DNA of 64,000 nucleotides, taken from positions 1 to 64,000 of the forward strand of contig MTLY02000003.1 in assembly GCA_002011035.2 (NCBI GenBank), given 5' to 3'. Both the position numbers and the translations under genes were made by a program. The notes beneath the pieces are model-generated. The model was not told the origin of the DNA. It did no database searches and saw nothing but the letters and a program-made list of their open reading frames with translations. Below, one piece after another: positions 2,881-3,664 of the stretch. Within the stretch, counting starts at the first letter, position 1; each line of letters starts with the position of its first letter. This DNA comes from Candidatus Hecatella orcuttiae (GTDB taxonomy: Archaea > Thermoproteota > Bathyarchaeia > Hecatellales > Hecatellaceae).

Positions 2881-3664
2881 CGAGCTTAAAGGGAGTCGTT
2901 AAACCCGGCTGTATGCTGGGAAACCGGAACCCAGCGCCCCCGAGAGAGGGAAAAGAGCGTTGGGCGTTGAAGGTGACCAGCAGGGAACCACCCTCCAGAA
3001 AGCCACAAAAACTGCGCATGCAACACCATAACAGGGCGTGAGAGTCCATGGTGCTCCATGAGTTCAGTGACCTAGCCGACGTTAAGGCGCTGCCGAAACG
3101 CCGCAAATACCTAGCCTACTACCTAGCTGGCTTCGCCGACGGTGAAGGCTGCTTTTCAATCTCAGTCAAAAGGCAGAATGACACAAAATTCGGATGGGTC
3201 GTCGACCCTGTCTTCCATGTGACGCAGCATAAAGACAACCGGCTGGTGTTGGAGTTGTTTCGGAGAATGCTGCAATGCGGTCGAATAATATCGAAGCCGG
3301 GCCAGGAGAACCTTCTCCAATACGTTGTCGACAACAGAAGGCAGCTGAAAGAAAAGGTCATACCTTTCTTCAGAAAGCATCGCCTCCTAGCCAAAGCCAA
3401 GGCCTTCAGCTTCTTCGCCGAGGTGGTGGAAAACCTTGAAAAGGGAGCTCATAGAAAAGCGTCGAGTTTCAAAGAGCTCATAAGAAACGTTTACGAGCAC
3501 TCCGCCGACCGAAAACATGAGCTTGACGGTATACTGAAGGAGATCGATGAAAGGGTGGACGCCTCAGAGACCATACGCCGGGCACCCCAAAGCCAGCCTT
3601 CAGCCTAGAAGGTTGGGGTGAAGATATGGTCCAGTATCCCCATTTCCCAAGATGGTGGATGTTG
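2881..3664 (+). ncRNA. Group I self-splicing intron in 23S rRNA (E. coli ~L1923 site)
   Basis: 5' exon ends ...GACUCU^ and pairs with IGS GGAGUC (2892-2897) with a terminal U.G wobble (P1). Intron ends in G (3664). P7 GACCAU (3569-3574)/AUGGUC (3626-3631) lies within R (UCAGAGACCAUACGCCGGGC) and S (AAGAUAUGGUCC) motifs. P3 CCCGGC (2904-2909)/GCCGGG (3577-3582). P8 ACCCCAA/UUGGGGU (3584-3590/3613-3619). P10 AAG (2889-2891)/CUU of 3' exon. Exons rejoin as ...GACTCT|CTTAAGGTAGCC, the uninterrupted LSU sequence. Confidence 0.9.
3048..3608 (+). CDS. LAGLIDADG homing endonuclease encoded in the 23S group I intron
   Basis: Single LAGLIDADG-type motif YYLAGFADGEGCFSISVKRQ, 186 aa, inside the rRNA intron. 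Confidence 0.93.
   Translation: MVLHEFSDLADVKALPKRRKYLAYYLAGFADGEGCFSISVKRQNDTKFGWVVDPVFHVTQHKDNRLVLELFRRMLQCGRIISKPGQENLLQYVVDNRRQLKEKVIPFFRKHRLLAKAKAFSFFAEVVENLEKGAHRKASSFKELIRNVYEHSADRKHELDGILKEIDERVDASETIRRAPQSQPSA

What the first reader, a model, noticed from the sequence alone, without database searches (positions are those of the whole stretch)
2881..3664. Group I self-splicing intron in an archaeal 23S rRNA at the L1923 (I-CeuI-type) site
Archaeal rRNA introns are usually BHB-type. This one shows group I hallmarks. The 5' exon ends in U (2880), paired as U.G in a 6-bp P1 (2875-2880/2892-2897). The last intron base is G (3664). R and S motifs give a perfect 6-bp P7 (GACCAU/AUGGUC). P3 (6 bp), P8 (7 bp) and P10 (AAG/CUU) can all be drawn. 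Group I introns have been reported in archaeal rRNA, so the class is not new, but they are uncommon and easily missed.
Basis: partly seen in the sequence, partly recalled or inferred. Interest (0 to 1): 0.88.

Follow-up and report, generated by a model that had tools for sequence, protein, structure and literature searches.

The report
Mobile group I intron in archaeal 23S
The 784-base insert in this archaeon's 23S rRNA gene is a group I (self-splicing type) intron carrying its own DNA-cutting homing gene, a kind already reported in archaea in 2018; the fresh point is that a related homing gene also sits, four bases further along, in introns that archaea splice in a quite different way.

Summary
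Window 2881-3664 (784 nt) interrupts an archaeal 23S rRNA exactly between the E. coli U1923 and C1924 equivalents. P1 with the U.G splice-site pair, P3, P4, P6, P6a, P7, P8, P9, P10 and a terminal G are all present. Twelve homologous introns keep 96% of 42 proposed pairs, with both-side changes at 17 pairs; slid controls keep 33-48%. A covariance model built without the window sequence matches both halves (94.8 and 56.5 bits). Rfam RF00028 gives only 21.1 bits (cut-off 50), as expected from Nawrocki 2018, who found RF00028 insensitive in archaea. No BHB motif can be drawn at the junctions. The intron encodes an intact LAGLIDADG_1 homing endonuclease whose last codons form P6a/P7/P3/P8.

Archaeal L1923 group I introns are published (Nawrocki 2018), so this is a new member of a known kind. 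Intron presence is patchy and the endonuclease tree rejects vertical descent within the class (p-AU 0.0014), so it is mobile. Added here: eleven relatives carry a homologous endonuclease in perfect bulge-helix-bulge introns at L1927, four nucleotides downstream. One endonuclease lineage thus appears to ride two unrelated intron types at one target. Splicing is inferred, not tested.

The parts
2861..2880 (+). 5' exon end of 23S rRNA (helix 69 region); 2875-2880 GACTCT is the 5' strand of P1
   Evidence: alignment A1
2881..3664 (+). group I intron at LSU 1923 (784 nt), ending in G3664
   Evidence: empty site in relatives
2889..2897 (+). internal guide: AAG 2889-2891 (P10 with 3665-3667) and GGAGTC 2892-2897 (P1 3' strand; G2892 pairs with U2880)
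   Evidence: helix 1 (12/12 paired, invariant)
2904..2909 (+). P3 5' strand CCCGGC (pairs 3577-3582)
   Evidence: helix 2: 100% paired, 4 of 6 pairs with both-side changes
2915..2984 (+). P4 (GCTGG 2915-2919 / CCAGC 2977-2981), P5 domain between, P6 5' strand AGG 2982-2984
   Evidence: helices 3 and 4
2988..2993 (+). P6a 5' strand CCACCC (pairs 3553-3558, spanning the ORF)
   Evidence: helix 5: all 6 pairs with both-side changes
3048..3608 (+). LAGLIDADG_1 homing endonuclease ORF, 186 aa, in the P6 loop; its 3' codons also form P6a 3', P6 3', P7 5', P3 3' and P8 5' strands
   Evidence: Pfam PF00961 9e-19; I-CeuI and archaeal rRNA-intron endonuclease matches
3553..3564 (+). P6a 3' strand (3553-3558) and P6 3' strand (3562-3564)
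3569..3590 (+). P7 5' strand 3569-3574, P3 3' strand 3577-3582, P8 5' strand 3583-3590
3613..3631 (+). P8 3' strand 3613-3620, J8/7, P7 3' strand ATGGTC 3626-3631
3633..3664 (+). P9 stem (3633-3639 / 3657-3663) and terminal G3664
   Evidence: helix 8: 3 of 6 pairs with both-side changes
3665..3676 (+). 3' exon start CTTAAGGTAGCC (CTT pairs in P10)
   Evidence: empty-site pattern in 59 of 201 class genomes
827..4683 (+). host 23S rRNA gene (archaeal LSU)
   Evidence: RF02540, 2710 bits

Best explanation
A mobile group I intron of the archaeal 23S type (IB4-like) sits at LSU position 1923. The precursor folds so that the 5' exon pairs with the internal guide (P1, U.G). A guanosine bound in P7 attacks after U2880, the freed exon then attacks after G3664, and P10 aligns the 3' exon, giving an intact 23S rRNA. 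The P6-loop ORF makes a single-motif LAGLIDADG endonuclease that, as a dimer, would cut intronless 23S genes around this site, so the intron copies itself by homing. Shown here: boundaries, covarying structure, intact ORF, empty sites, patchy presence, HEG tree at odds with the host tree. Inferred: catalysis in vivo, cleavage specificity, homing.
For: Exact LSU interruption at 1923/1924. 42 pairs in 8 helices, 96.2% paired on 12 introns, with P3 4/6, P6a 6/6, P8 2/4 and P9 3/6 pairs covarying. Relatives-only covariance model including a bacterial L1923 intron matches 2861-3105 at 94.8 bits and 3448-3676 at 56.5 bits (about 30 bits can come from exon flanks). RF00028 aligns P7/P8/P9 at 3469-3657 with 21.1 bits and gives up to 43.5 bits in relatives. 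BHB motif absent. LAGLIDADG_1 9e-19, I-CeuI matched at 70.8 bits. Full intron in 12 of 201 class genomes, exact empty site in 59. Scattered on the LSU tree, 10 changes. HEG class monophyly rejected, p-AU 0.0014.
Against: RF00028 is below its gathering score. No RNA data: no proof of splicing or of G-dependence. The IB4 subgroup was not assigned with the subgroup models. The relatives were found through the HEG, so they are not an independent sample of group I introns.
Confidence: 0.95

Rival explanations
1. An archaeal bulge-helix-bulge intron cut by the tRNA-splicing endonuclease and ligated, carrying a HEG.
For: BHB introns with a homologous HEG are common four nucleotides downstream at L1927 in the same phylum.
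Against: At either possible junction register the window forms 2 of 4 central pairs and 2-3 of 6 inner pairs, while eleven L1927 introns form 4/4 central and 5-6/6 inner pairs with 3-nt bulges. The group I core covaries.
Confidence: 0.02
2. A decayed group I intron that no longer self-splices, or an insert retained in a fragmented but functional 23S rRNA.
For: No RNA evidence is available. P9 has two wobble pairs and P6 is short.
Against: All core helices and the splice-site nucleotides are intact, and the ORF is intact. The insert sits in a universally conserved functional region of the only LSU that fits the host family.
Confidence: 0.03
3. Assembly or binning artefact: the rRNA locus is foreign to the host genome.
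For: The bin holds a second, 80%-identical LSU without the intron on contig C2.
Against: The window LSU is sister to the same-family genome G001 (88%, support 100/100), and the flanking 505-aa gene is closest to same-family genomes. It is the C2 locus that is out of place. The identical HEG occurs on 5 contigs, one of 1.27 Mb.
Confidence: 0.04

Closest known systems
Archaeal IB4 group I introns at LSU/1923 (Nawrocki, Jones and Eddy 2018, PMC6125680; e.g. IB4.9, IB4.11, IB4.13, IB4.20)
   Same: Same gene, same insertion position, archaeal host, similar size (IB4.11 756 nt, IB4.13 753 nt by their coordinates), LAGLIDADG HEGs found in 21 of the 39, P7 identifiable, RF00028 not significant.
   Different: Different host genome; not scored here with the IB4 model. 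P0082, the 58%-identical HEG of Micrarchaeota RBG_16_36_9, may be that of IB4.20 (guess by phylum, not checked).
Chlamydomonas chloroplast LSU intron with I-CeuI (L1923)
   Same: Same insertion position (own knowledge); single-motif LAGLIDADG endonuclease; the HEG matches I-CeuI (2ex5) at 1.5e-18.
   Different: Organelle host; endonuclease only distantly similar.
Bacterial L1923 group I introns (Bipolaricaulota L026, L018)
   Same: Same site, same core motifs, homologous HEG (35-36%).
   Different: Bacterial 23S target sequence; different P5 and P9 regions.
Archaeal BHB 23S introns at L1927 with HEGs like the solved archaeal rRNA-intron endonuclease 3e54
   Same: Homologous HEG (about 35-49% identity) and almost the same DNA target.
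   Different: Excised at a bulge-helix-bulge by a protein endonuclease; no group I core.

Membership tests
Group I intron | P3-P7 pseudoknotted core with R/S motifs | tested here: met
   P3 4/6 pairs and P7 1/6 pairs with both-side changes, 98.6-100% paired
Group I intron | 5' exon ends in U paired with G of the guide (P1); P10 possible | tested here: met
   U2880.G2892 in 12/12 introns; AAG/CUU by reading
Group I intron | last intron nucleotide G | tested here: met
   G3664; G in all 12 archaeal introns
Group I intron | Rfam RF00028 above gathering score | tested here: not met
   21.1 of 50 bits. A detection threshold, not a defining trait: the published archaeal set was also not found by RF00028 (PMC6125680)
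Group I intron | guanosine-initiated self-splicing | not testable with these tools
   needs in vitro splicing with labelled GTP
Group IB4 subgroup | best match to the IB4 subgroup model | not tested
   GISSD subgroup models not on hand; assignment by site and relatives only
LAGLIDADG homing endonuclease | LAGLIDADG_1 domain with acidic residue in the motif | tested here: met
   PF00961 68.7 bits; LAGFADGEG motif in translation
LAGLIDADG homing endonuclease | cleavage of the intronless site | not testable with these tools
   needs purified protein
Archaeal BHB intron | two 3-nt bulges flanking a 4-bp helix at the splice sites | tested here: not met
   2 of 4 central pairs at either register

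The most novel reading that the evidence does not exclude
One LAGLIDADG endonuclease lineage, aimed at the LSU 1923-1928 target, has switched between two unrelated intron types in this archaeal phylum: group I introns at L1923 and BHB introns at L1927. That would show how a BHB intron can take over the niche of a group I intron (or the reverse) without changing the homing target, a concrete route for the 'group I replaced by BHB' idea of Tocchini-Valentini 2011. The BHB HEGs form one clade (100/99) whose nearest homologues outside it, among those sampled, are the archaeal L1923 group I HEGs, ahead of bacterial L1923 HEGs, other LAGLIDADG enzymes and I-CeuI. The direction is not resolved.
Probability: 0.45. 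Interest if true: 0.6.

Novelty: new member of a known kind. Interest (0 to 1): 0.36.

Why it matters
It confirms, on a contig that fits its family, that archaeal rRNA can carry group I introns with all splicing elements, and shows that the generic Rfam model still misses them. With its relatives it gives a natural set: group I at L1923 and BHB at L1927, homologous endonucleases, plus empty sites in close kin. That makes the disputed link between group I and BHB introns directly testable.

Tried and rejected
BHB reading tested at both junction registers and rejected. RF00028 at gathering and at loose threshold in window and genomes: no hit over the cut-off. The apparent TAG stops in relatives' HEGs are not recoding: their ORFs end at a TAG in P8, and the protein-level match simply runs on into the conserved ribozyme core. 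The second LSU in the bin was considered as an intronless second operon of the same cell and set aside as probably misbinned, since it and a neighbouring gene fit other families. Host class could not be named: the window shares its phylum, but not its class label, with a Nitrosocaldus genome. Tocchini-Valentini 2011 was not in the library, so it is cited through PMC6125680. The 12-genome covariance count includes the window in the training set; a relatives-only model was therefore built as an independent check.

Full report
What is there. The window begins inside an archaeal 16S rRNA gene (1-651), followed by a 23S rRNA gene (827-4683) and an archaeal RNase P RNA (4813-5114). The 23S gene carries a 784-nt insert at 2881-3664. 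The exon sequence ...GTAACTCTGACTCT | CTTAAGGTAGCC... places the insertion after the equivalent of E. coli U1923 (reading). The joined sequence is found intact in 59 of 201 genomes of the same class (one of these is the second locus in the window's own bin, see below).

Structure. P1 (2875-2880/2892-2897 with U2880.G2892), P10, P3, P4, P6, P6a, P7, P8, P9 and the terminal G were located by reading and checked on 12 homologous introns: the window, nine same-class genomes, Nitrosocaldus L016 and Heimdallarchaeota L017 (A1). Of 503 pair cells 96.2% pair, against 33-48% for slid partners. Seventeen pairs change on both sides (shuffle mean 6.8, 0 of 500 as high). P3 covaries at 4 of 6 pairs, P6a at 6 of 6, P8 at 2 of 4, P9 at 3 of 6, P7 at 1 of 6. 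A covariance model trained only on relatives, one of them bacterial, finds the two halves of the window intron at 94.8 and 56.5 bits. Conserved exon flanks alone can give about 30 bits with a similar model (empty sites). The ORF-less core folds with z = -3.9 and shows P1, P4 to P9 unaided; P3 cannot appear because it is knotted with P7.

Rfam. RF00028 reaches 21.1 bits at 3469-3657, below the cut-off of 50, and none of 20 genomes searched, nearly all with such introns, exceeds it (best 43.5 bits). Nawrocki et al. 2018 report the same insensitivity and needed subgroup models (PMC6125680). The missed cut-off therefore does not count against the class.

Not BHB. Only two junction registers are possible. 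In both, the four-pair central helix of a BHB motif forms 2 of 4 pairs. The same test returns 4/4 central and 5-6/6 inner pairs for eleven introns at L1927 in related genomes, so the test works.

The endonuclease. ORF 3048-3608 encodes 186 aa with a LAGLIDADG_1 domain (9e-19) and the motif LAGFADGEG. PDB matches include I-CeuI, the enzyme of the chloroplast L1923 intron (1.5e-18), and an rRNA intron-encoded endonuclease matched over nearly its full length (3e54, 2.3e-22). Its final codons (...DASETIRRAP) are the P6a/P6/P7/P3/P8 strands, and the same peptide ends the ORFs of most relatives. This overlap of reading frame and ribozyme core is known as core creep (PMC3073962).

Mobility. In one sample of 201 class genomes, 12 hold the full intron (hits over 50 bits). 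On a 23S tree of 33 loci intron presence needs 10 changes, no better than shuffled labels. The nearest relative of the window, G001 in the same family, has an empty site. Genomes of one genus (G141 and G148 versus G143; G056 versus G019) differ in presence at roughly 2% rRNA divergence. The window HEG groups with HEGs from another class and from Nitrosocaldus; keeping same-class HEGs together is rejected (p-AU 0.0014). Homing or other horizontal transfer is the simplest reading.

One endonuclease lineage, two intron types. Relatives of the HEG at about 35-49% identity sit in BHB introns at L1927, four nucleotides downstream. They form one clade (100/99). Outside that clade their best matches, judged with L038 as query, are archaeal L1923 group I HEGs (about 90-113 bits) ahead of bacterial L1923 HEGs (about 80), other LAGLIDADG enzymes in the PDB (61) and I-CeuI (45). 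The solved archaeal enzyme 3e54 (131 bits) belongs with the BHB set; from memory it is I-Vdi141I of Vulcanisaeta. Both insertion points lie in the stretch that I-CeuI-type enzymes cut (established knowledge), so one target could serve both introns. Direction and date of the switch are unresolved, and the branch joining the two sets is weak when the divergent Heimdallarchaeota HEG is included (38/11).

Host and bin. The bin G000 contains a second rRNA locus on contig C2 whose LSU is only 80-82% identical and has no L1923 intron. The window LSU is sister to a same-family genome (88%, 100/100) and its neighbour gene also fits that family, while the C2 locus and one neighbour fit other families. 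The window copy is therefore taken as the host's own and the C2 locus as probably misbinned. The phylum includes Nitrosocaldus; the class could not be named.

Known or new. Archaeal group I introns at LSU 1923 were published in 2018, and the HEGs of that set belong to LAGLIDADG Pfam families including PF00961. This is a new member of that kind. The HEG sharing between group I and BHB introns at one target was not found in the papers searched and is the part worth following.

Noticed in passing
G000 contig C2 (L051: 4354-6522, 7044-10233, 10381-10772): A second, 80%-identical rRNA locus with its own RNase P RNA lies in the same bin, with no L1923 intron; probably misbinned, since its rRNA and one neighbouring gene fit other families.
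   Followed up: partly
L051:5531-6194: The 16S gene on contig C2 is interrupted by about 664 nt that overlaps a 282-aa ORF; intron type not determined.
   Followed up: no
L035, L038, L040-L048: Introns of 556-583 nt at LSU 1927 form perfect or near-perfect bulge-helix-bulge junctions and carry HEGs homologous to the window's group I HEG.
   Followed up: yes
L010, L036, L037: Three L1923 group I introns of about 1.13 kb carry 333-380-aa HEGs with two LAGLIDADG repeats, unlike the single-repeat HEG of the window.
   Followed up: no
L011, L043 (and L047): HEGs at L1927 with internal stops, i.e. decaying homing genes.
   Followed up: no
window 3553-3608: The last HEG codons double as ribozyme core strands (P6a, P6, P7, P3, P8); the peptide SETIRR is conserved because the RNA is.
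   Followed up: yes
L049, L050: Group I-like introns at LSU 1931 in same-phylum genomes with distant HEG homologues and the best RF00028 scores (42.7-43.5 bits).
   Followed up: partly
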